From: Sphagnum magellanicum | Taxonomy: Eukaryota > Streptophyta > Sphagnopsida > Sphagnales > Sphagnaceae | Assembly (NCBI GenBank): GCA_021904315.1 | Contig: CM038914.1 | Coordinates: forward strand, 23,609,065 to 23,673,064 | DNA length: 64,000 nt | Direction: 5' to 3' | In this document: positions 598 to 46,155 of the stretch, in pieces | Layout: each line of letters opens with the position of its first letter | How positions within the stretch are numbered: position 1 is the first letter of the stretch | The notes under the pieces: model-generated | What the model was told of the DNA's origin: nothing | Databases searched by the model: none | What the model saw: the letters and a program-made list of their open reading frames with translations, nothing else | Position numbers and translations under genes: made by a program

Positions 598-3500
598 TTA
601 CCTTCCACTTAGAAAATCATTTTCCAAGAATACTGTCAAAGATAGCTCGTCAGGAGGTCGTACAGATGGTTTGATGTATCCACCTTTATAGTGCACATCA
701 CTGCAAATAAGGATGTAGCCATTGTCATATCTGACATCTGCATTCTGGAGGTCAATTGCTGGAAACACTGGCAGTGGAAACCCCTTCTTCAGACTGTGAT
801 TTAATATTGGTATAATCACTTTTGAAATCAATGTGCGCACTGTTGACTGCACAGAAGATAATATCACAGTGGCCAACTGTTACTTCAGGTTTCTTTTTTC
901 TTTTGAGATTCTTGCTAGTTTGTATCATGAGACCACCATATTGCCATTCACACAATATAGGTAGGACTTAGGACTTAGATGAACCTACAAGCAACAAGTG
1001 AATTCACCCAGCAATCTCACATGTACCATAACTACAGTTTGTCTTCTAAGCCCTATATCACTTGAATTTCGAGTGTTTATTTTCCATCTACAAGCAGATG
1101 AAAGCTATCATGTGTTAGGTCAAATTCAACACACTTTTCACAGAAATAGAATGCCTGACCTCACACCGGAGTTAAACAACTGTTAACATGTAAGAGTCAT
1201 GTTGAGTAAAACTGTGACCTATGTACAAAGAGGCTAGCAGCTTATATGACATGAGCCCCACACCACAAAATGCACAACAAAGATAAAAGAGGAGCAATCA
1301 GAAAGGCTACTACCTGCATAAGTTTAACAGGGAATTTGCCAATCTCACTCCATTTTAGCTGGAGGGTGAGATCATTTAATGTGACTTGTGCTGTGATGTT
1401 GTTCCCCTCAAGTCCAGCTATAGCATCCATTGAAAAAGTCTGCAACAAAATGCCCGTCACTTTAACACCTACAAGACACAGATATAGCCATTAACTACAA
1501 ACATTGCCATGTGATGTACAATGTTGTTCCAGATTCCATACTCAATTGGCACCCTGTTTAATGAGAACTGTATCCTATATTACCACCCATAAGAATGCTG
1601 CTTACTGAGCATCATATTTTGCAGCCTATGTAGTAGACATTACTGGCAGATAAAGTTTTCCTAATGATGTATGCTTTTTCTTGGTATTACAAGCCACTGA
1701 GGAATCTCTCAAAGCTCTGGAACTACAAAGGTTCAAATGGTGACAAATTGCATGCAGCAGGTTTCCTCACAGCTAGTGGTAAGTAGGCACAAATTTGGGA
1801 AGAGTTACACATTATTCACAGTAGTAGTCCTTCTGCTGGCTACACAAAACCCATTATGGTGTACATCAATCACAATACCAGTTAATGTCCCACTTTAAAA
1901 GTGCAGTGAGGGTCCTCTCACAACCATCACAAGGTGAATAGTGCTGTCATACTTCAGGAAAAATTATCAAACCAATACAATGAAACAAACACCCACCATG
2001 GATAAGCAGGCTACAGGGACTGAACCATTGTTGGTCTTGACAATAATTGTCATGTCAGCACCTGCAAATGCCTTTGCTCCATCCTTTGAAAGTTCAACTT
2101 GCGGTGCAGAAGAGACAGAGAAGTCAAGTGCCATGTCATCATTTGGATACTTTTTGTAGAGCTGTGGTATAAGCCACTTCCAAAAGGCTGTATTTAACAT
2201 TGACTCTTGGGGCAACTCATCAACCAACCAATCCAAGACTCCTGCCTAGAAAAAAGCAGACACTGACAAGACTCAGAAACAGAGAAAACAACAGGGTGGG
2301 GAAAATGGAAATTTGCTGCTGTATTCACAGGAGCTCCAAGGCAGGTTTCAACTATGTTAGTTTGAATAATACATTAAATTCCTTGGACATTGTGTGACCA
2401 AGGAAAATAGAGGAAACTTTATGGGCAACCCCAAGAGCTAAGGGAAATGAGGAGATTAACAAAGATAAAAGATTGAAAAAAAGTGACAACAAAACAAAAA
2501 AGCAAGGTACATGAAGGTATATGGGCAAAATCAGAGAAGCTCCAGCTCGAACCTAAGGGCTCATAGAAATGTAGAAAGCAGAAGACCAAAGGCAAGAGCA
2601 TTATCAGCTCCAAAAGAGAGCAATGTACCTCAAAATAGACTTTTGCAGCTGAATTGATGACATAATCACATACAGCAATGGTGATCATCTTTGCGGATTC
2701 ACTACAGAATATTCCTGGGGGCAAGGAATGGTCAGGCTGCAGGGGGACAGTGGGTTTCTTCAGAGAGATAAATTCACCCTTTACACCTACACTCAAAAAG
2801 GTGGGACTAACAAAGGGGTCTTCCACAACTGTGACATCAACGGCAGATATATCATCAATCGGAAGACTTCGTGGAAGTCCCAAAAGAAAAGTGTCCAACT
2901 TTCGAGCCCCTGAGATAATTGCTGATGTGATGGCTCCCTCAACTGCTGCCCGAATTTCATCATCAAATGCATATACAAACCTGGTTCAGGTTGCCACAGG
3001 CCAAAGGTGAGAAACAAAATGAAAAATATCTCTGTACTCTTTTCTGCCTCAACCATTTCAACTACTCCATTTAAGATTGCATCAAATGACCACTTCTAAT
3101 CTTCTCTGATAGGTATACACTTGAGATCAATCATTTGTAACACATGGCATTTTTGAAACAATGGTATCAATTCAGTGCAACATGATCAGTGAACAACACA
3201 AATGGGACCAACTCTGTTGTTCAGAACCTGGGAAGCTTTTTAAGAACTAGTGCCATATCTATGAGATTGCAGAGAAGACTTCACAACTATACTTCAAATC
3301 TAATGGTTATGTTGCATCCAGCAAAACCAAAACCGACACAAGAAAAATAGATGTGGTCATAACCTTAAGAGCGTCACTCACAAAGCATCAGACCATTGCC
3401 ATTATTATAAATAGCAGTGACTAGCTACCATGACTTTATGCTGACTTCATGAGCTCCCAAAGATGGGTGTAGATAATCAATAACTCTCATGAGTATTGAG

Positions 3501-6225
3501 AAATCTCCATAATCACAATTAAGGAAACCAGGACCAGGTGAAAAACCTTTCCTTCACATCAAAGGAAAACTCCCAGAGAAGAACCAGGAAGAAGTACATA
3601 GAAGGGAAGAACAGAACAAAAAAACAAAAAAAACAAGCAGTATAATCAGCAGTGACAGTCTATCACTTGTTCAGGGAACATCGGCAGTAACATATAGGTA
3701 TAGGATAGTGACTCATCTATCACAACTTCCCCACTGGCTGCATCAGCTCCCTACAGTGGGAAAAGGCCAGTGAAACCACTAGCCTGCATACTGAGTTTCT
3801 GTCGCAGGTGCAGAAGCAATGGGAGGAGGACTCAGTCATGATACTGACTAGTACCAACCAATGCAGAAGGTGGGAGTAGAAAAGTATAAATAATCTGCCA
3901 AAATGTTTGGGTAAACACTCACTCAAGTCTGCATCCTGAGTTCTGTTGCATCTCCAAAAGCAGCAGGCAGACTCAGTCATGCTGTTGGCTAACACTCAAA
4001 TGATATAGCTCACAAAGAAAGTCAAGTATTATTGAAGCTGCAACAAGCTACCTCTTTACAATTAGTACCATGTAAATTACCAGGACATAAGCCAACAATA
4101 GGCTATCATTGTGCTCCAAACTGACTGTGAAAGTGATTAGTTACCACTGGTAAAGCCAAGAAGCACCACCATGCAACTCAATGTCCAGATCCTCAATATA
4201 AGTCCCGCATTCCACAACAGTTAACCGCAAAGTTCCATTATGTGCTTGCAATGTGAAAGTTACACCAGCCTGCATGCCTGTCACCTGAGAATTCACCACA
4301 AACCTCAATGCCCTTGTGATCTTCTTTGCTGATGTTGAAACCATGCCACTATCCATGCGATTACACGAGCAAGCTATGGATGTTAGGCACAATCCTATAC
4401 TGTGATAGTTCTTCTCCCAATAATGAAACCAAGTCGTTGAATTCCATGCATTTACTACATGACCAAGTTAAGGGTGTCACAAATAATTCTCTGGTGCAAA
4501 TTTGTGAAAAAACCCCCTCATATGCTTTCTGGTTAGAGGCACAGGAGATGTAATTTCTTCCATTTAGTTTCTTCTGGCACTTCATGTCACTATCATGCAT
4601 AGCAGTTAGCAGGCCTTCTACTTCATACCAAACCACTATTCCAATCTTGTTATGGACCAGAATAACAATCCTCACAACTGTTCATTCACATCTCATGGGA
4701 CTGAGGCTTGGTTGCGGAAATGAGCACATGACAACAACCAAGCAAGCTAAAGAGAACTGTGAAACAAAGGATGCCAGTGCAAGAAAATGAGAACCCTGCA
4801 AAGTACTGAATATGCTTATTTAGTTTGGTAAGCCCAGTCCACCATAACTTAGAAGGCTGAGAAACCATAAAAATGATTAGCTACTTTGATACAGTTTACC
4901 CTACTGTATACAAATTAAAAGTTGTGTTCATAGTAGAAAGGTTGCTCAGTGACAGTAAACACACTGCAAAACTTTCTTGGGGAAAAAAACAAGCACTTTC
5001 TTTGTTGCCCTACTCAGCACAAGTGCAAGTGCATGGACCACCATCTACCAGAATATTTCAATGAAACTCTAACTGGGTCTTCTTGCATATGATAGCAGAC
5101 ATGGAACAAATGCAGCCAATAATATACCTGAGTCAAGGACATAGAAAGGACCAAAAACTGACCTCAACATCTGCCCATCCTCCATCAGTTACAGGAAATG
5201 GAATATAGCTGGAAGTACACTCATATTTCCAATGAAAACGCATCCTTGCCTTGATATCCCCAGCAAACACTGTAATTCCAGTCTTTCCCAAATCAACATC
5301 AGAGTAAGAAACATTGGCACCCGATAACTCAATATGAGTGATGGTAGTGTCAACTTGACCAATTGGAGACTTCGCTTGTGAATGTATATCAGGTAAAGAG
5401 AGTGGTGTAATCTCTTTTAGTATTTGATTCACCAGAACTTCTTTCACATAAATGAGACCTGCCTCAGAAAGGGTTCCCAAGATCCCTGCTCCTTCACTGT
5501 CATCAGTCAGGTACTGCTGTGTATTATGAGAGCTGTGCTCCAAAATTTGATCCAGGTTCAAATCCAAACGGGGCCTCCATAACTGCCATGTTTCAACATT
5601 CAATGTAACAAAAGTGAATGGCAAGATGAAACAAAGTGAATATAGTCTGTTCACCTTTCCCAAGTAATCAGCAATCTGGATGGTAGGATGGCATGTAGTG
5701 ACAATATGGGCATTCCAAACCTTGACCACAAAGATGTTGATTTTATATCTTTATAATACAGAAATTTTTTATGCAACTAATAACTTTCATGTGCAAAATA
5801 GAAACTGATGCTAAACAATCTGTGGGATAAACAAGAGGATCATGATCAAGTAATTGAATCTGGAAGCTCAATTCAATTGTGGACAGAAAATGTTCAAAAG
5901 GTACCTCTTTGTGTTCTTCACTGGTTTCCAGTATCTCATTACTTTGTAATAGCCTTCTTGAAACCCAAGGATACTCATTTCTGAGTTGTTGATCTGCAAC
6001 CCCTAGAAAATGGCCTTGCACAGGTTTATCTGAGACCCTGAATTCTGCATGTCCCTTGACCACATCCAGAAATTCAAGCACTCTGTGATTGTGATTCTCT
6101 GATGCTCTACCTGCTCCAATTGTGTTGACCCTGCCTACTGTTCCCAGAAACAACAAGCTTGAAAAAAGAAGGAGCACCCTGGCAGGTTCTCCCACAGACT
6201 GCCCCATTTCCTTTCTTGAAACCAA
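598..6225 (-). CDS. Secreted BPI/LBP-family lipid-binding protein, seven exons
   Basis: The family (plant LBR proteins, animal BPI and LBP) binds lipopolysaccharide or lipids outside the cell. I trace exons 6225-5905, 5582-5163, 4284-4145, 2980-2629, 2245-1993, 1468-1314 and 876-598. All introns are GT..AG and phases match, giving 639 aa. An N-terminal hydrophobic run (VLLLFSSLLFLGTVG) looks like a signal peptide. BPI landmarks follow in order: EAGLIYVKEVLVNQIL and LSLPDI near residues 147-172, the GGASWLYQ segment at exon 3/4, PQLYKKYPNDDM in exon 5, LTLQLKWSEIG in exon 6, and KKGFPLPV plus the ICSDV end in exon 7. Cys229 and Cys273 could form the family disulfide. Plant members are usually about 490 aa; here some 100 extra residues follow the signal peptide, in exon 1 and the start of exon 2. 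Either of two in-frame Met codons (6225, 6207) could be the start. Family call: strong. Ligand: unknown. Confidence 0.93.
3240..4060. repeat. Dispersed intronic repeat, copy A (BPI/LBP intron 3)
   Basis: Intron 3 (2981-4144) carries a block whose pieces recur at 6590-7340. Shared pieces include GAGATTGCAGAGAA (3268), the ACTCACAAAG segment near 3375, CATCAGCTCC near 3745, GACTCAGTCATG (twice in this copy), and the end GCTGCAACAAGCT (4038). A third partial copy is in an intron of the gene at 20-22 kb. There is no coding potential. It may be an old non-autonomous transposon. Confidence 0.55.
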
Positions 6226-13449: not shown

Positions 13450-16400
13450 TCATGTGCTAGTGTGGGTGTATTCAGCTTTCCTTCGATGCAAGATGTCTTC
13501 AAGCTTTCCCAACAACCTCTGTGCCATCCATCCACTAATTTATATTTAGATGATAATTAAAAAACTTTTAAAAATATTTAACATGGTTAAAGTACATTGG
13601 GCTAGTTATTGCCTCTTCAAATCAAGAGGCCCTGAATGGCAAGGTTTCCCAACTTCCATTACATAGGCCTACTTGCCCCCAATAAACATTTTAGACCTAA
13701 TTAATTAGGTCTCCATTGTGGAGCATTGTGTACAATGGTTATGTGAAGAACCACCACCCTTGCAAGGAGGTAAGACCTGAGGTGGCTCAATGAACCTTGT
13801 AGAAAATGCTTTTGGTCATGTTAACACTAAAGGGTCTATTTCATTTGTTGTGTAAAATATTTTTAAACCATATATTAGAATGCAAAGAGGAATATGAGGA
13901 AAACTAGGCCAAAAGGGATGTGGACTTGTGAAAAAGAAATGAAAGCATGTTATAAATTAAATTCATCTTAACATATATTCTTAACCATGTTAGGATCTAA
14001 TGCATAACAACCAAGAATAGCTATGTATGTTGATAGTAGATACTTCAAAGAATGAACATCAAAAAAAGATTCCTTGCCATTGGCAACTTGTGTTCAAGCT
14101 TTGAAAGCTAACCTTGAAACTTTCACGATTGATGGAAACAACTTTGCATTTTGTGACCGTTGCCACGGTGGCAGCTCGTGGAGCATCATTAATCAATGCC
14201 AATTCACCAAAGTAATCTCCCTTATTGTATCTCATTACAATTTGACCTTTTGATCTTGCCTCCGCTTCTCCCTATACACATGATTTTGTAATAGTCCCAT
14301 CTTTGGGTCATCTATGTTAATTGGAATGCTCATACTATTATAAAATTGCTTTTAGACCTTGACATTTCATGGTTGGTCCAAGGTTATTTTGATTCATACT
14401 CTTAATTTGTGATACTCAAAGTGCTGCAATCCATTCTTTCACTCATAGAAATTTAATGGTAATTTTCTTTACTAATCATTCTCACCAAAACACAAAATAT
14501 AACCAAAACCAAAATTCAAAGTGCAAAAACATGGTTTTTGAAAGGTTATTGTCGGAGACAAGAATGAGGAAGTCCTTGAGGTTGAAAAATAGAATTTAAA
14601 ACCCAAGGCCAGAAATAGATATGTGCAATTGAAATTAGATATTCAAAAAACAATAGAATGTACCTAAGCAGCCTAGTCCTAGAAAGAAAAACTTTAAACT
14701 ACACAAAAAACTTAACAATTTCCTTGTCCATTCATCCATCCAAGGAAACAAGGGAACAAACAAAGAAAAATAAGGGCTCATCATAAAGATGATTTGATGA
14801 TTGATTTTCTCTTCATTATTATTTGATTCCATTGTAGAAAATTTATGCTTGTGGTACCATTGCTTGGGCTTGACCCAAGGTTTAATCCTAGGTACCCAGT
14901 TTAGTACTTTGGTTGACATTTCTACTCCCCCCCCCCCCATGTACCAATTTCATTTTCACTAAGGCCCCTCTTCACAATAACCCCAAATTATAAAGGGGTT
15001 GGAAATTGTAGGTTACATATAGCATGGATGAATGGTGAACTGAATCCACATGGACTTGCAAGGTGAATTCATTCCCAAACAATTGTTTCTTACACCTACT
15101 CCTTAAGAGTGGTAAGGATCTTATAGGCGGGTTCTTACACCTACACCTAAAAGAGTGATAGGTGTAGGTGTAAGAACCCACCTATAAGATCCTTACCACT
15201 CTTAAGGAGTAGGGGTAGATCCCTCCTCCCCTTCCCTAAGAGAGAGACACTCACGGATGTAAGGTGCACTCCAAATACATTAGGAAATTTCTCAAGTGCT
15301 TGAGGGTGGTGAGGATTACTGCTAACCTCTTCAAGAAAGTAGAACTTGTCTCCTGGTGTGCCCTCAATTATTATAACTTTCCCAGCATCAAAGTACTCAG
15401 CTTCCAGCACATCGGCAATCGCAGATCTCTCATACTTGTCAAGTGACTGCCAACCACCATTTGATCAACTAACAAGAACAAAAGCTTAGGTGCCATTTAA
15501 TGAAGCCAAAAATTCACCATGGCAACTTGGAGTGTGAGGGGATCTTATAACGAAAAAAACATGAAACTCAAATATTCACAATGGGTGTGTGATAACACAA
15601 TGAGGCACGTGGGTATCATGATTATGATAACCCGAAGTTCAAAAGGGAAACAAATACAAGGATCCTTAAGAAAGTAATTTTTATTTGAACTGTAAATTGG
15701 CTTTCTGAGGACCTGAAGAAGAGGCACATTCTCGAGGAATTCCTCATACAGCTGCCTCTTTTCGTTGGTTGATGTCATCAAAATTGATCGAAAAGTGCCA
15801 CGATCCATTGCCCATACTATGCAATCAGTGCTTGCCTGCAGCAACCCGCACAATTTGTGGGAAGGAATCACTAGACAATGCCTTGTTGGGCTGCCCTTTT
15901 ATCCTACCATGTCATGCACTTTGTTTTTTGGGAGCTCTAGATTTTAAGATTATTGTTTTGATGCAATGCACCATGCTGGTGATCCCTTCAGAATCAGATG
16001 TGTTGTGTGGGTAGCCAATTACAGAGTGAGGGGGAAGAGAAAAAGAGAGAGACGGACCTTGACAGTGGCAGCACGAGGAGCATCATAGAGAAGGGCAAGC
16101 TCACCAAAGCTGTCGCCTGCAGAATAAGTCTTCACCATCTCTGGATTTGTGCCCGGTCGCTTCTGTAGCCAAACCTCACATGAACCTGCCTGCTTACCAA
16201 ATACCATGCACACTTGAGTAATTACGTTGTACTTCAAAAACTTCCCACCTTGAAAGCACTTTGAAACTCTCAAAAACAAGATATGTAACAAACCATCAAT
16301 GATAGTCTAATGAACATTGTGAGACCTGAAACATGATTGAATACTTTGATTTGCTGAAGTACTCATTCAATTTGTGTCTTGGATGAATGTAGAGGAAAAA

Positions 16401-17253
16401 CATTTGAAGCCGCATGTGAGAGATGAAGAATCACCTCAAGGAGGTAGAACATAAGGCCAGATTCACCTTGTTGAATTATGACCTGTCCAGCTTTATGTCT
16501 CTGTTCCTCCACTGCATCAATTACCTGCTACCAATCTATGCTTTTTATCAGTTCATCACTGTGTTTTCTTCATTCATGAGAGACAAATAAGTTATTCATC
16601 AATTGATTCCTAACCCTTCCCTTGCTTGTAATGAAATAGAAAGATGATGGCTAATCTTCATTGCAACTAAGTCAATGAAGATTGTATAAAAATTCAAGTG
16701 CAATCAGGATATGTTACCAGTTCAATAACTTTCTCCCACATGGGAAACATTGGTTGGGATTGTGGTGGTGAGTACCGTACGAATCTGGTCCTTGTCAAGA
16801 GATGTGAAGAGGTAGCTCTTTTCCAAGGCTTTTTGTATCCGGTGTTTGGCCTCATTTGTCTTTGGAATTACCTGCACTCCAGAACATTCATTTTATTGAA
16901 CATCTAGCTCTCAGATATCCTTTCCTACTGTGGTGTCCTCTCAGCTAACTTCACAGCAAGAGAACATTAGAAACAGCAAATAAAGAGATCAGCAAACACT
17001 CTTCCAGGATGCTAGTCAGTTAGCAAATGCCACAACCCAACCAACACATTGAATATTGTCAAGCTCTCTGCTCACAATGTTCTGATCTTCTTCTGCCTTT
17101 TGTCTTTGTGTCCCTAATAAACCTGATATGATATGAGCATCTCAAACCAGCTTCTAATCTAACATGCACCTTAGGGATATACTTCTCATCAGTGACAGCA
17201 CATTCAGCACTCACGCCGGTCCTGCGAAAGGAGAGGGTGTGCTTCCGCCTTTC
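13450..17253 (-). CDS. cAMP-dependent protein kinase regulatory subunit, exons 2-9 (N-terminus unresolved)
   Basis: PKA regulatory subunits bind the catalytic subunit and release it on cAMP binding. Eight minus-strand exons, all phase 0 with GT..AG introns: 17253-17170, 16871-16776, 16524-16435, 16189-16058, 15835-15713, 15446-15327, 14271-14113 and 13518-13450 (stop TGA 13452-13450). They give 290 aa. Numbered from the first traced residue: inhibitor site FRRTGVSAE (9-17), with Gly at the phospho-acceptor position, so a pseudosubstrate; linker VIPK (29-32); domain A with QGE..G and phosphate-binding cassette FGELALLYDAPRAATV (118-133); domain B with cassette FGELALINDAPRAATV (236-251); C-terminal helix RLLGKLEDIL. 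The Glu and Arg that contact cAMP are present in both cassettes, and the PRAA form is the cAMP-type rather than cGMP-type variant. Compared with the usual ~380 aa, the N-terminal dimerisation/docking domain is missing from what I traced and must lie upstream of 17253. The family call is firm. Confidence 0.93.
15095..15213. repeat. Near-perfect hairpin, 55-bp arms, in a PKA-R intron
   Basis: Arms 15095-15149 and 15159-15213 are reverse complements at 54 of 55 positions, with a 9-nt loop. It sits in the intron between exons 15446-15327 and 14271-14113. Inner arm motif: TCTTACACCTACACCTA. Parts (GGTAAGG..CTTA and CCTACCACTCCTAA-like strings) recall repeats at 49790-49925, 53370-53470 and 57170-57290. 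It could be a young foldback MITE or a small-RNA precursor. Confidence 0.8.
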
Positions 17254-18059
17254 CTGCACATCTCATATTCAACAAAATCAGTTAGTCTTCTGAGCCAAAT
17301 GAATACAGAGGCTACTTTTTTATGGAGATATGAGGAATTGCACAATTGCTTGGAGTTGAACTGAACAGAACTGAATTGAATCAGATCTACAAACCCAAGC
17401 AACAAACAGGATTTGAATATAAAATGAATCCCTTGCAAGCAGTAATACATTTGCAGGTGTCACTGCAACTGGCCATGGTATTTATTTACCCCTGATTTCA
17501 AAGCAGTCAGAATTCACACAAAGAAGCAATGGTCATCTTCAACATTTTGCAACTGAGATATTTATGCAAATGTTTGCAAAATCTCCAGGGTAATTTATTC
17601 TCTTTGGACCTGGAGAAACCTTTGTCTAACCTTTGTCTACTTCAAGGTTGTGTAACAACCCTACCCAACAACACTTGACAAAGGTTTGAAGTAGAAGGGG
17701 ATCACAATCATAGTATCTGTGTCTAAATCCAATGTGAACCTTGATCAAACCACATCTCTGGCATGCTTGCTGCTGGGCACTCCATCCCTGCTCTGTCCTC
17801 ATATCTTAAATACTGAATTTTGTGAGGTCTTGACTGTAATTATACTAGACCATGCTTGTAAATGCATGGTGCTCACCAATTTTACAAGATCTCCCATGCA
17901 TCACAACTCCACAAGGTAAAATGGATCGGACAACAAAGCAAAACTGACAGATGGAAATAAATGAGTCCAAGATGATCATCAGGTCATTACGATCAATGTG
18001 GCTTGATCAAATCACACATTGATCTTCATGCAACAGAAATCCACATACCAGAAATCTGC

Positions 18060-18171
18060 ATACCCTGTACAGGATCTTGTAGGTTGCACAACCTAGCTAG
18101 CAGTGGTTTGAACCCAGCACTTTGCAACATGACCAAGAGCCTTAGCCATTAAAGCTCTAAGACCCAGCCAC
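18060..18171 (-). repeat. tRNA-like sequence, probable SINE head
   Basis: On the minus strand starting at 18171, a D-arm-like stem (GAGC..GCTC) with TAATGGCTAAGG is followed by a B-box-like GGGTTCAAACC (complement of 18104-18114). The anticodon and acceptor stems do not close properly, so this is not a working tRNA gene. A Pol III-promoter-bearing SINE or tRNA pseudogene fits. It lies in the first intron of the PKA-R gene if the candidate start exon is right. Confidence 0.45.
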
Positions 18172-18839
18172 AAAGGGGAAGAAGAGAGGTACAAGAGAAC
18201 TCCAAAAGGGCTGCAAATCCACCAGAAACATGCCAAAGACAAACTTTGTTTCCAGTTTTATGGCTTGATTTCTGGTTTGCAAGAAAACCAGCAACCAGAG
18301 AATCTCCTCTGAGCCATGCCATGCCATGACCTGACTGTAGAGGATTGGATTCTGGACTTTAATATAGATGCAGCAGATGTGCAGAAGAATGGATGTGTGC
18401 ATTTGCCTGACAAACATTCCTGACACAATTATGCTTCACCCCTACATAATTTCCTTGCATTCCATTCATAGTTGGACTGTTGTTGTCAAGATTTCTCTGC
18501 AATTCCATAGACTTTTTGTTGTTGCTTTTGTTGGGGATTGTGCTCAGTCAAGATTGTGTATGTTCCTATAACTCTCCATTCTCATCATGGTTCAACGAAG
18601 TCAAATCCATATGCCACTGATGGGAATGGCGATGCTAAAAGAGCATGATGGCCTGCTTGAAGACTGTCTTTATAGGACACCAAGAGAGAACAAGGGTTTG
18701 GGTATCCGGTGGTAAGTTGTGAGGGAGATAGATTGTTGTAGAAGAGAAAGTAGGTCATTTCCTGCACATTCTGTGATCTCTGGAATGCACATTGTAATGT
18801 GCATTGAGCGGCAGTTAGTTTGAGAATTTAGTGGGAGAA

Positions 18840-19500
18840 GATGAGAGAACGGGGAGGACGACGACGAAGAAGGGTGTACTTTTGTTGCGAGGTAATCAGT
18901 AGCTTTTCGGCCTTTGGCGCTACTATAAGCTGCCATCTTCTCGCAACCTAACACGGAGGAAGTACTGCAACCTATATTGCCTCCTACTTTCTTTTCAGCA
19001 AAAAGTTGTGGATGCTGATAAAAATTGTATGCTAAAACAGCCACAACACTCCTCTTCTTCTTGTCGTCGTCGTCGTTGTCCTCCTCCTCCTCCTTCTATT
19101 CGGTCTTCTCCTCCTATTCTATTCATTTAACTCTCTTGATGAGAAGAGCTATCTATCTCCAAGATCCACATGGAAATTACACAACAACAAGATCAAGATC
19201 TAAATCGCTTGCTGCTGTTTCAAATCCTCAAACATTTTTTGCATCCAAAATGCTCATGTTTTGGTTTGTTCTCGAGCGGCCCTTTTTTTCCTACTCTCGC
19301 AAGGGCGGAAACGTATCAAGGTCGATGGAGAAACGGTTTTCAAACGATTTGACGCTGCCATTTGAACCGTTTCAGTGGTCCCCCAAAAGAAAAGGGGCTC
19401 TCTTTTTTTGTCTCCACGTTTTCTCCAAGAGTCACCACTTCCTACAAGTTTTGGAGAAATTTTGTATCTTGTCTTTGAGAGCATCTTCACCAACGATCAG
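18840..19500 (-). promoter_or_regulatory. CpG/GAC-repeat island, likely 5' region of the PKA-R gene
   Basis: A locally CpG-rich block with GACGACGACGAAGAAG (18858-18873) and its CTTCTTCTTGTCGTCGTCG counterpart near 19050. It lies just upstream of the PKA-R exons in the minus direction. Open frames on either strand are low-complexity (Ser-rich from TCC/CTT repeats) and look like chance frames in a 5' leader or promoter. Confidence 0.35.
18880..18936 (-). CDS. Candidate first coding exon of the PKA-R gene
   Basis: ATG at 18936 in a good context (GAGAAGATGG) opens 19 codons (MAAYSSAKGRKATDYLATK) and ends at AAA|GTACAC, a phase-0 donor that matches the phase of the downstream exons. ATDYLATK resembles the start of RII-like docking helices, but no exon completing that domain was found between here and 17253. 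Treat as a hypothesis: it could equally be 5' leader. Confidence 0.3.
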
Positions 19501-43720: not shown

Positions 43721-44850
43721 ATATTGGACATTCACAATGTAGGTCTTGTAGTTTTATAAACTTTCTACTAACCCTAACCTAAGTGATGGAGGGGCAACTA
43801 TTTGTAATACTTGCATATTAAAACTTTTACATAAGTGAAATATAATTGGTAGTAAAAATTATATGGGAATTGCATGGATTTGGTTTTTTTGCATTTCAAT
43901 TCTAATGGGGTCCCAATTTTATCATGAAGGTATTGGAAATTCTAAGTCCATTTCATTCAAGCTCCACCATAATATGATTGGTCCATTGTATGTAATACCT
44001 TCATTTTTTGTTTTTGACATTGTGATAATAAATATTTAAAAGAAGAAAAAGTAAAATAAAATTATGTAATATTCACCTTTGAAGCATTGAATGTTGGCTA
44101 GATTTTTTTGTGTTTCACATAATACCCAAATGTTGGGCATAAAATATGCATATTTAATGATAAACAAAAACTAATGAAAATAGTTTTTATTTTTTTAATT
44201 AGAAAAAATTAAAAAATTAAAAAATTAAAAATAGATATTATGAGGAAGAAAAAGAAGAAAAAGAATTTATAAAAAGAAAACAGATAATAAAATTTTAGAA
44301 CGAGAAATAAAAGTGCAAGAAATTAAAAAAAAAATCTATAAGAAGTAAAAACAAAATTTAAAAAAAAAAGTTTCATCTCAATCACAAATCGCATTGTTTT
44401 CATATGTGGGTATTACATGTTGGGATTAAGTTTTCAACTACTATTAGTATTTGCCATAATAGGTGATACCTATATGTTACCCATATAATAGGTGTTAGTT
44501 TTGGGAACTCCAAACCATTATAAAGATGGTGTTAAAACCTAAAATTGACACAAGTATTATAATGCCCAGAATCTAAACCCTGAACCTCTATATGTAAATT
44601 TAACCATATCTTAAAACCCATATGTTTTACATTAATTTTCTTATGATTTAAGTGATTGAATTAGATAATCATTGGAAATACAAGAAATTTTTTCTTAAGT
44701 TTAATTATTTGTTCTAACTAAAATCAACATTATTTTTTATGTCCTTGATTGATTTCTATAAAAGAAAATATTGAAGTTCATTTTACACCTTGTGGATTCC
44801 ATTATTATTTTTCCTTTAGAAAAGTAGATGTTTAATTATGAAATAGAGAG
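43721..44850. other. AT-rich intergenic, nothing recognised
   Basis: A/T and A/G homopolymer-rich (about 44190-44370); no supported feature. Confidence 0.4.
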
Positions 44851-45880
44851 GTTTATACAAAATATAGAAAGGTTTTGTTGAAAGGTAAAGGTTTACTTGA
44901 TATGTAAAAAGATTATGTTGAAAAGTAAAGGTTTAGACGAAAAGAAATAAAGTATAATTCTAGCCAAAAAGATATAAAAGCATTATTGTGAAGTAAAAGT
45001 TTAGCCAACGAATATAAATGTTTTGTTGAGAGATCGAGGTTTAGCAAAAAAAAAGGATATAGGTTTGACTAAGAGCTAAAAGTTTAACCAAAAAGATATA
45101 TAAGTTTAGCCAAAAAGATATATATTTTTTCCAAAAGTTAGAAGTTTAGCCAATAATAGATATAGGTTTTGCCAAAAGAGAAAAGTTTAACCAAGAAGAA
45201 ATATAAGTTTTTCGAAGAGAAAAAAATTTAACCTAGAAGGGATATAAGTTTTGCCAAGAGAAAAATGTTTAGCCAAGAAAAGATATAGGTTTTGCCAAGA
45301 GAAAAAATTTAGCAAAGAAGATATGTAGGTTTTGCAAAGAGATAAAAGTTTAGTTGAAAAAAGATATAGTTTTCGCCAAGAAGGGATATAGGTTTTGTTA
45401 ATAGAGAAAATTTGAGCCAAAAAGATATATAAATTTTGTCAAGAGAGAAAATTTTAATTAAGAAAATATATGGGTTTTGTCAAAAAAAAAAGTTTAACCA
45501 AAAATAGATATAGGTTTTGCCATAAAAGAGAAATTAGCCAAGAAAAGATATGGGTTTTGCCAAAAAAAGAAATTAACCAAAAAAAGATATAGGTTTTGCC
45601 AAAAGGGAAAAGTTTAGCCAAGAAAAGATATAAGTTTTGCCAATAGAAAAAAGTTTAACAAAAATAAAATAAGATTTCGCCAATTGAAAAAAATTTAGCC
45701 AAGAAAATATATAGGTTTTGTCTAGAAATAAAATTTTAACCAAGAAGAAATATAGTTTTTACCAAGAAAAAAAAGTTTAACCAAGAAGAGATATATTTGC
45801 CAAGAGATATAAATCTAACCAAGAATAAATATATGTTTGGCCACGAAGAGATATAAGTTTTGCCAAGAAAAGATAGAAAG
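44850..45880. repeat. ~40-45 bp minisatellite, more than 20 degenerate units
   Basis: Unit consensus words are GATATAGGTTTTGCCAAGAG and AAAAGTTTAGCCAAGAA, with many point changes. The minus-strand frame with repeated 'KTYIPS' strings comes from this array. It leads directly into a transposon terminus at 46098-46150. Confidence 0.85.
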
Positions 45881-45889
45881 GATAAATAA

Positions 45890-46155
45890 GGGATTAGTTG
45901 TTAGTTCGTTGGGTTCAAGGTTTAGGCTAAGAGGTAGGTTAATAGGGTAACTAGGTGGGAAGGTAGTATGGAAGGTCAGGGTTGAGAAAAAATTGGCCCA
46001 AAAAAAAATGTCAAAGGTTAGTAGGCAAAACATTTGACTATGGTAGAATGTTGGTTAATGTAAGGTGAAGAGGCAAATGAAAAACACAACCTATCCTGTG
46101 GACAGAACGAACAACTGGTGCAGTCATGGAGGCTGGTTCACTTTGGTTCAACCTT
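45890..46155 (-). mobile_element. Inverted terminal fragment of the TIR transposon family
   Basis: GTGGACAGAACG, AACTGGTGCA and GGCTGGTTCACT (46098-46150) match, in reverse complement, the left 60 bp of the element at 34147. Just inside is GAGGTAGGTTAATAGGGTAA-type sequence, the reverse complement of the TACC-rich subterminal region. The other end was not found. Confidence 0.6.

What the first reader, a model, noticed from the sequence alone, without database searches (positions are those of the whole stretch)
13450..17253. Canonical PKA regulatory subunit in a plant-type genome
Seen: eight phase-0 exons with the inhibitor site, two intact cAMP cassettes and the C-terminal helix. Known: flowering plants are not known to have canonical PKA regulatory subunits, while some spore-bearing plants and algae have cAMP components linked to motile sperm. 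Inference: the organism is a non-seed streptophyte with working cAMP-PKA control.
Basis: partly seen in the sequence, partly recalled or inferred. Interest (0 to 1): 0.75.

Follow-up and report, generated by a model that had tools for sequence, protein, structure and literature searches.

The report
Peat-moss PKA regulatory subunit gene
This is an intact, native peat-moss (Sphagnum) gene for the cAMP-binding brake on protein kinase A, of a kind already linked to sperm swimming in a liverwort; the same genome also carries the matching kinase and the cAMP-making enzyme.

Summary
The window lies on chromosome-scale contig C8 of Sphagnum magellanicum. It has a pseudosubstrate inhibitor site (RRTGV), two tandem cAMP-binding domains with both key Glu/Arg pairs, and a C-terminal helix with the B-site capping Tyr. 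It lacks the dimerisation/docking domain of animal and fungal subunits. It is native: it falls in a supported moss clade within a supported streptophyte clade. The same genome also holds a second PKA-R gene, two PKA catalytic-subunit genes and a CAPE-like (cyclase + phosphodiesterase) locus, so the parts for cAMP-PKA control are present. The biology is known in kind: PKA-R and CAPE are reported to regulate sperm motility in Marchantia (Yamamoto 2024, not held; known from citing sentences and recall). The Sphagnum gene is a new member of a known kind. The most interesting side result: Cryptomeria, a conifer without motile sperm, keeps both PKA-R and PKA-C, matching its published CAPE. Function in Sphagnum is not shown.

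The parts
18880..18936 (-).
   Evidence: matches P0001 N-terminus
17170..17253 (-). Exon 2, aa 20-47
17212..17226 (-). Inhibitor (pseudosubstrate) site R29-R30-T31-G32-V33, followed by SAE
   Evidence: coordinates counted by hand from exon 2
16776..16871 (-). Exon 3, aa 48-79
16435..16524 (-). Exon 4, aa 80-109 (cAMP domain A)
16058..16189 (-). Exon 5, aa 110-153 (cAMP domain A)
16064..16105 (-). Phosphate-binding cassette A, aa 138-151 (GELALLYDAPRAAT; E139, R148)
   Evidence: coordinates counted by hand
15713..15835 (-). Exon 6, aa 154-194 (end of domain A, start of domain B)
15327..15446 (-). Exon 7, aa 195-234 (domain B; Y199 at the A-site capping position)
14113..14271 (-). Exon 8, aa 235-287 (domain B)
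14167..14208 (-). Phosphate-binding cassette B, aa 256-269 (GELALINDAPRAAT; E257, R266)
   Evidence: coordinates counted by hand
13450..13518 (-). Exon 9, aa 288-309 and TGA stop (C-terminal helix; Y304 at the B-site capping position)

Best explanation
A native, vertically inherited Sphagnum gene for a PKA regulatory subunit. In the resting state the RRTGV segment should sit in the substrate cleft of one of the two Sphagnum PKA catalytic subunits and block it as a pseudosubstrate (Gly at the phospho-acceptor place, so it cannot be phosphorylated). cAMP made by CAPE should bind the two domains (Glu/Arg pairs E139/R148 and E257/R266) and release the kinase; the phosphodiesterase part of CAPE resets the signal. 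Because there is no dimerisation/docking domain, the unit is most likely a 1:1 R:C heterodimer without standard AKAP anchoring. The likeliest place of action is the developing, flagellated sperm. Shown here: gene structure, residues, ancestry, presence of the partner genes. Inferred: inhibition, cAMP binding, monomeric state, sperm role.
For: Gene model equals deposited P0001. The best solved relatives are PKA-R chains (223 to 207 bits), ahead of the best PKG chain (183 bits). Key residues kept; R29, R30, V33, S34, A35 and E36 are among the columns at least 90% invariant in 31 aligned sequences, which argues for a real kinase partner. Both cassettes end in PRAAT with Ala, which by the recalled Ala/Thr rule favours cAMP over cGMP. 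Moss clade 99/97 inside a streptophyte clade 99/99 (30 rows that I chose from the 120 listed). Two PKA-C genes; in the stitched C18 model the K72, E91, E127, D166, E170, N171, D184, T197, E230 and Y247 equivalents are kept. A CAPE-like locus with PDE and cyclase exons. MpPKAR is said to contribute to formation and motility of the Marchantia sperm flagellum (one passage of PMC13190419); MpCAPE promoter activity in antheridia (passage of PMC5159850).
Against: No expression or biochemistry for Sphagnum. Trp196 of animal PKA-C, an R-docking residue (recalled), is Phe in the Sphagnum C model and Phe or Tyr in the 10 other green-lineage rows aligned; Trp260 of RI-alpha is Tyr here, so the R:C interface may differ in detail. 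RII chains (182 bits and below) score no better than apicomplexan PKG (183 bits), so the ranking against PKG rests on the RI-type and protist R chains. No structure could be predicted (tool switched off).
Confidence: 0.85

Rival explanations
1. Contaminating animal, fungal or protist DNA in a plant assembly.
For: Canonical PKA-R is not expected by readers who know flowering plants only.
Against: The gene lies in a 25.3-Mb contig, has eight introns, has other moss orthologs at 61-75% identity against 46-51% for the named fungal rows, and nests in the moss clade. A second copy with the same intron positions lies on C13.
Confidence: 0.01
2. A decayed or untranscribed gene (pseudogene) that still keeps its exons.
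For: No RNA-seq could be read here.
Against: All nine exons are open with GT/AG borders. P0026, a 173-aa product on a 937-base JGI contig, 95% identical, joins exons 3-6 without introns 3-5, although those exons span 1159 bases in the window, and runs on into a sequence like intron 6, as a partly spliced RNA would. That this contig is RNA is my inference.
Confidence: 0.04
3. A cAMP (or other ligand) receptor that works without PKA-C, or with another AGC kinase such as the PKG-like genes on C7 and C10.
For: PKG-like genes exist in the genome with an exon about 50% identical to human PKA-C. Trypanosome R subunits are known to have departed from cAMP (recalled).
Against: Two PKA-C genes are present; the C18 model's best solved relatives are PKA-C (345 bits) well ahead of PKG (264 bits). 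The inhibitor site is conserved.
Confidence: 0.08
4. Correct identification but a function outside sperm, for example in vegetative stress or development.
For: Cryptomeria, which makes no motile sperm, has PKA-R and PKA-C, and CAPE cDNAs were obtained from its male strobili (passage of PMC8115329).
Against: Reported phenotype and expression in Marchantia are male and sperm-related; no angiosperm is named among the best 120 rows, though many rows have no name.
Confidence: 0.15

Closest known systems
MpPKAR, PKA regulatory subunits of Marchantia polymorpha (Yamamoto et al. 2024 PNAS e2322211121; paper not held; seen only as a citation and one sentence in PMC13190419; that it names two PKA-R genes is recalled)
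   Same: Same architecture, RRTGV inhibitor site, both cassettes; 65% identity over 98% of the query for P0009
   Different: Longer N-terminus (45 against 28 residues before the inhibitor site) and a longer C-terminal tail (348 against 309 aa); Marchantia has genetics, Sphagnum has none that I found
Animal type I R subunit (bovine RI-alpha, 1rgs; RI-beta, 4din)
   Same: Pseudosubstrate-type inhibitor site, tandem cAMP domains, E200/R209/E324/R333 and Y371 equivalents
   Different: No dimerisation/docking domain: only 28 residues precede the inhibitor site; A-site cap Trp260 is Tyr199
Protist PKA-R of 5kbf ('CAMP-dependent protein kinase regulatory subunit, putative'; Plasmodium by recall)
   Same: Best PDB match, 222.7 bits, five bits ahead of RI-beta
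   Different: Distant lineage; not in the tree; the small lead is no sign of transfer
Second Sphagnum PKA-R on C13 (orthologs P0002 S. jensenii, P0016 S. fallax)
   Same: Identical exon lengths for the seven exons that follow exon 1, up to the last (28, 32, 30, 44, 41, 40, 53 codons), so the same intron positions; same domain order
   Different: In S. magellanicum the A-cassette Arg is His (CAT against CGT in the C8 copy), so its site A is probably weakened

Membership tests
PKA regulatory subunit (eukaryote-wide) | Two tandem cyclic-nucleotide-binding domains | tested here: met
   PF00027, two stretches, E=4.1e-42
PKA regulatory subunit (eukaryote-wide) | Inhibitor site R-R-x-(G/A/S)-hydrophobic N-terminal to the domains | tested here: met
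   R29 R30 T31 G32 V33
PKA regulatory subunit (eukaryote-wide) | Glu and Arg of both phosphate-binding cassettes | tested here: met
   E139/R148 and E257/R266
PKA regulatory subunit (eukaryote-wide) | Closer to PKA-R than to PKG, EPAC or channels | tested here: met
   PDB ranking: the best 15 chains are PKA-R; RII chains tie with apicomplexan PKG lower down. The tree holds PKA-R relatives only and does not test this
PKA regulatory subunit (eukaryote-wide) | A PKA catalytic subunit to regulate in the same genome | tested here: met
   C12 (L064) and C18 (L065)
PKA regulatory subunit (eukaryote-wide) | Binds cAMP and inhibits C in a cAMP-reversible way | not testable with these tools
   needs protein biochemistry
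Animal/fungal dimeric RI/RII type | N-terminal RIIa dimerisation/docking domain (PF02197) | tested here: not met
   Not found at E<=1 in 8 of 8 streptophyte proteins scanned, which have 16-67 residues before the inhibitor site. So it is a PKA-R but not an RI/RII-type dimer; R subunits without this domain are known elsewhere (Dictyostelium, recalled)
PKG (cGMP-dependent kinase) | Kinase domain in the same chain | tested here: not met
   309-aa protein; no protein-kinase match in Pfam at E<=1

The most novel reading that the evidence does not exclude
cAMP-PKA signalling is a whole, co-inherited module in streptophytes (CAPE + a monomeric PKA-R without docking domain + PKA-C) whose job is not only sperm motility: the conifer Cryptomeria lost motile sperm but keeps PKA-R with its inhibitor site and both cassettes, and PKA-C, as well as the published CAPE. 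That would make Cupressales a test bed for a non-sperm role of cAMP in seed plants.
Probability: 0.35. Interest if true: 0.6.

Novelty: new member of a known kind. Interest (0 to 1): 0.32.

Why it matters
Whether land plants use cAMP as animals do has long been disputed; two reviews call plant cAMP-dependent kinases controversial (2018) or still awaiting molecular confirmation (2020) (passages of PMC6174285 and PMC7402341). A moss genome with R, C and a combined cyclase/phosphodiesterase shows that the parts of the animal-style switch belong to the plant inheritance. That makes the question testable by simple gene removal in moss, and by asking what the retained parts do in conifers without swimming sperm. 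As a single gene the finding is an expected ortholog of a published Marchantia gene.

Tried and rejected
Contamination: rejected by tree, contig length, introns and a second copy. 'R without C': my whole-length human PKA-C query of the genome (116 of 817 candidates scored) listed exons that I read, by recalled motifs, as AGC VIII, S6K-like and PKG-like (examples read), and I took PKA-C to be absent. A 124-residue activation-segment query (150 of 583 candidates scored) brought up short exons on C12 and C18, which read as two PKA-C genes. The absence was an artefact of dense introns. Adenylyl cyclase by Pfam PF00211 over the genome gave no match at E<=0.001; the cyclase appeared only on reading downstream of the PDE exons: the two exons apart score E=0.0014 (below the curated cut-off) and 3.1e-5, joined by hand 2.6e-9. 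Pfam on ten neighbouring open frames gave matches in 2 of 10, both LBP/BPI and both below the curated cut-off. tRNA scan of the window: none. Literature: the PNAS 2024 paper is not held under DOI or PMC id. No paper holds 'PKA catalytic subunit' + Marchantia + 'AGC kinase' (0 hits); none of the 15 titles listed (of 16 papers) for Sphagnum + 'protein kinase A' + cAMP is on Sphagnum PKA (listing only). Searches were seen as listings; PMC12237933, PMC8115329, PMC13190419, PMC12867704, PMC11371191, PMC5159850, PMC6174285 and PMC7402341 as passages only, of which PMC12867704 and PMC11371191 showed only the reference to the 2024 paper.

Full report
WHERE IT IS. The window is G000:C8:23609065-23673064 of a 439-Mb, 31-contig genome. 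Contig C8 is 25,344,393 bases, exactly the contig length listed for protein P0001, CY35_08G137400 of Sphagnum magellanicum, which matches the spliced window protein at 100%. The organism is therefore the peat moss Sphagnum magellanicum, a non-seed land plant with swimming sperm (the latter recalled).

THE GENE. Reading the minus strand in three frames and joining the exons gives eight exons: 17170-17253, 16776-16871, 16435-16524, 16058-16189, 15713-15835, 15327-15446, 14113-14271 and 13450-13518. All have lengths divisible by three and GT/AG borders. The deposited protein begins with 19 more residues, and these are encoded at 18880-18936, followed by a GT donor. The coding gene is thus nine exons, 13450-18936, 309 aa. 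Expression evidence is indirect: P0026 (173 aa on a 937-base JGI contig, 95% identical) joins exons 3-6 without introns 3-5, although those exons span 1159 bases in the window. It then runs on into a sequence that matches the start of intron 6, given one inserted base and two residue differences. That is what a partly spliced RNA from a Sphagnum relative would look like; that it is RNA is inferred.

WHAT IT ENCODES. Above Pfam's cut-off there is only cNMP_binding, two stretches, E=4.1e-42. In the PDB the best 15 chains are PKA regulatory subunits (5kbf 223 bits, 4din 218, 1rgs 215 and others), ahead of the best PKG chain (183 bits); RII chains (182 bits and below) tie with apicomplexan PKG. 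R29, R30, V33, S34, A35 and E36 are at least 90% invariant over 31 aligned sequences, though Marchantia P0009 itself reads SSS where most read SAE. There is no dimerisation/docking domain: PF02197 was absent in 8 of 8 streptophyte proteins scanned at E<=1, while several of the fungal hits listed carry it.

ANCESTRY. A tree of 30 proteins, chosen by me from the 120 listed, puts the window protein in a moss clade (99/97) within a streptophyte clade (99/99); the nearest rows outside are four algal ones, two of them named (Cymbomonas and Dolichomastix). The root was placed at the midpoint. Two rows that I had put in no group (P0010, P0017) fall inside the streptophyte clade. Within the mosses the place of the window copy relative to the C13-type copy is weakly supported (89/78), so I do not date the duplication. 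Cryptomeria and the Gb_ protein (Ginkgo by its prefix) pair at 100/99. Among the 120 best rows of each of two searches no angiosperm is named; many rows carry no name, so this is a weak negative.

PARTNERS IN THE SAME GENOME. (1) A second PKA-R on C13:17.34 Mb whose exons after exon 1 have the same lengths, up to the last one (28, 32, 30, 44, 41, 40, 53 codons), with AG before and GT after each. (2) A CAPE-like locus on C2:24.578-24.588 Mb, plus strand: three stretches of PDEase_I (E=9e-25, 6.9e-18, 4.7e-8), and some kilobases further on two cyclase exons (E=0.0014 and 3.1e-5 apart, 2.6e-9 joined by hand). That they are one gene is inferred from order, strand and the known CAPE layout. Weaker PDE-like exons lie elsewhere on C2, C6, C5 and C1 and were not followed. 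(3) Two PKA catalytic-subunit genes on C12:8.66 Mb and C18:11.79 Mb, exon by exon about 32-75% identical to human PKA-C. A stitched 278-aa C18 model matches a Sphagnum balticum protein at 98%, and its best solved relatives are PKA-C at 345 bits against 264 for PKG. K72, E91, E127, D166, E170, N171, D184, T197, E230 and Y247 equivalents are kept in the model; Trp196 is Phe and Glu203 is Asp. A first, whole-length PKA-C search had missed these genes. Named rows include mosses, liverworts, Selaginella, Diphasiastrum, ferns and Cryptomeria, besides many algae, oomycetes, fungi and a few animals.

LITERATURE. CAPE tracks motile sperm in streptophytes, with Cupressales as the exception; the authors suggest that Cupressales may help to reveal a cAMP role apart from motile sperm (passages of PMC8115329). 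The two Cryptomeria CAPE clones had a frameshift or a 42-bp insertion; the authors point to splice variants. This weakens the idea of a fully working module there. [quoted passage not shown] The 2024 paper itself is not held; that it names two PKA-R genes is recalled. Earlier reviews call plant cAMP-dependent kinases controversial or unconfirmed (passages).

VERDICT. Function in Sphagnum remains inferred. As novelty it is an expected ortholog, named only 'hypothetical protein' in the database row seen. The points that go beyond it are the R + C + CAPE set in one moss genome, the missing docking domain in the 8 streptophyte R proteins scanned, the His in site A of the S. magellanicum C13 copy, and the presence of both R (P0020) and C (P0214) in Cryptomeria.

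It misstated the lead of 5kbf; it is five bits. C13 intron positions, first read by eye, were computed, and the inverted repeat was measured.

Noticed in passing
G000:C13:17341310-17343391 (loci L002, L007), minus strand: Second PKA-R gene; its A-cassette reads GELALLYDAPHAAT, with CAT (His) where the C8 copy has CGT (Arg) and where the S. jensenii and S. fallax orthologs have Arg. Could be a weakened site A, an allele, or an assembly error.
   Followed up: partly
Proteins P0020 and P0214 (Cryptomeria japonica): A conifer without motile sperm has PKA-R (58% identical to the window protein, RRNSV site, both Glu/Arg pairs, His at the A-site cap) and PKA-C (66% identical to the C18 model), matching the published CAPE exception in Cupressales.
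   Followed up: partly
G000:C7:1.786-1.793 Mb and C10:9.319-9.325 Mb: Two genes with cyclic-nucleotide-binding exons next to AGC kinase exons, like plant PKG-type kinases (name recalled; a PP2C part was not looked for); the activation segment reads TFSMCGTPDYMAPE.
   Followed up: partly
window 15091-15217: Inverted repeat, arms of 59 bases, 97% complementary, 9 bases apart, inside intron 7 of the PKA-R gene; possibly a small hairpin transposon.
   Followed up: partly
window 2419-5750, minus strand: Two open frames with weak LBP/BPI N- and C-terminal domain matches (E=2e-4 and 1.1e-4), both below the curated cut-off; probably a neighbouring BPI-family gene.
   Followed up: partly
window 45102-45875: Degenerate tandem array of about 41-base units; the 44001-46000 bin is purine-rich on the + strand (GC skew 0.31, AT skew 0.17).
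   Followed up: no
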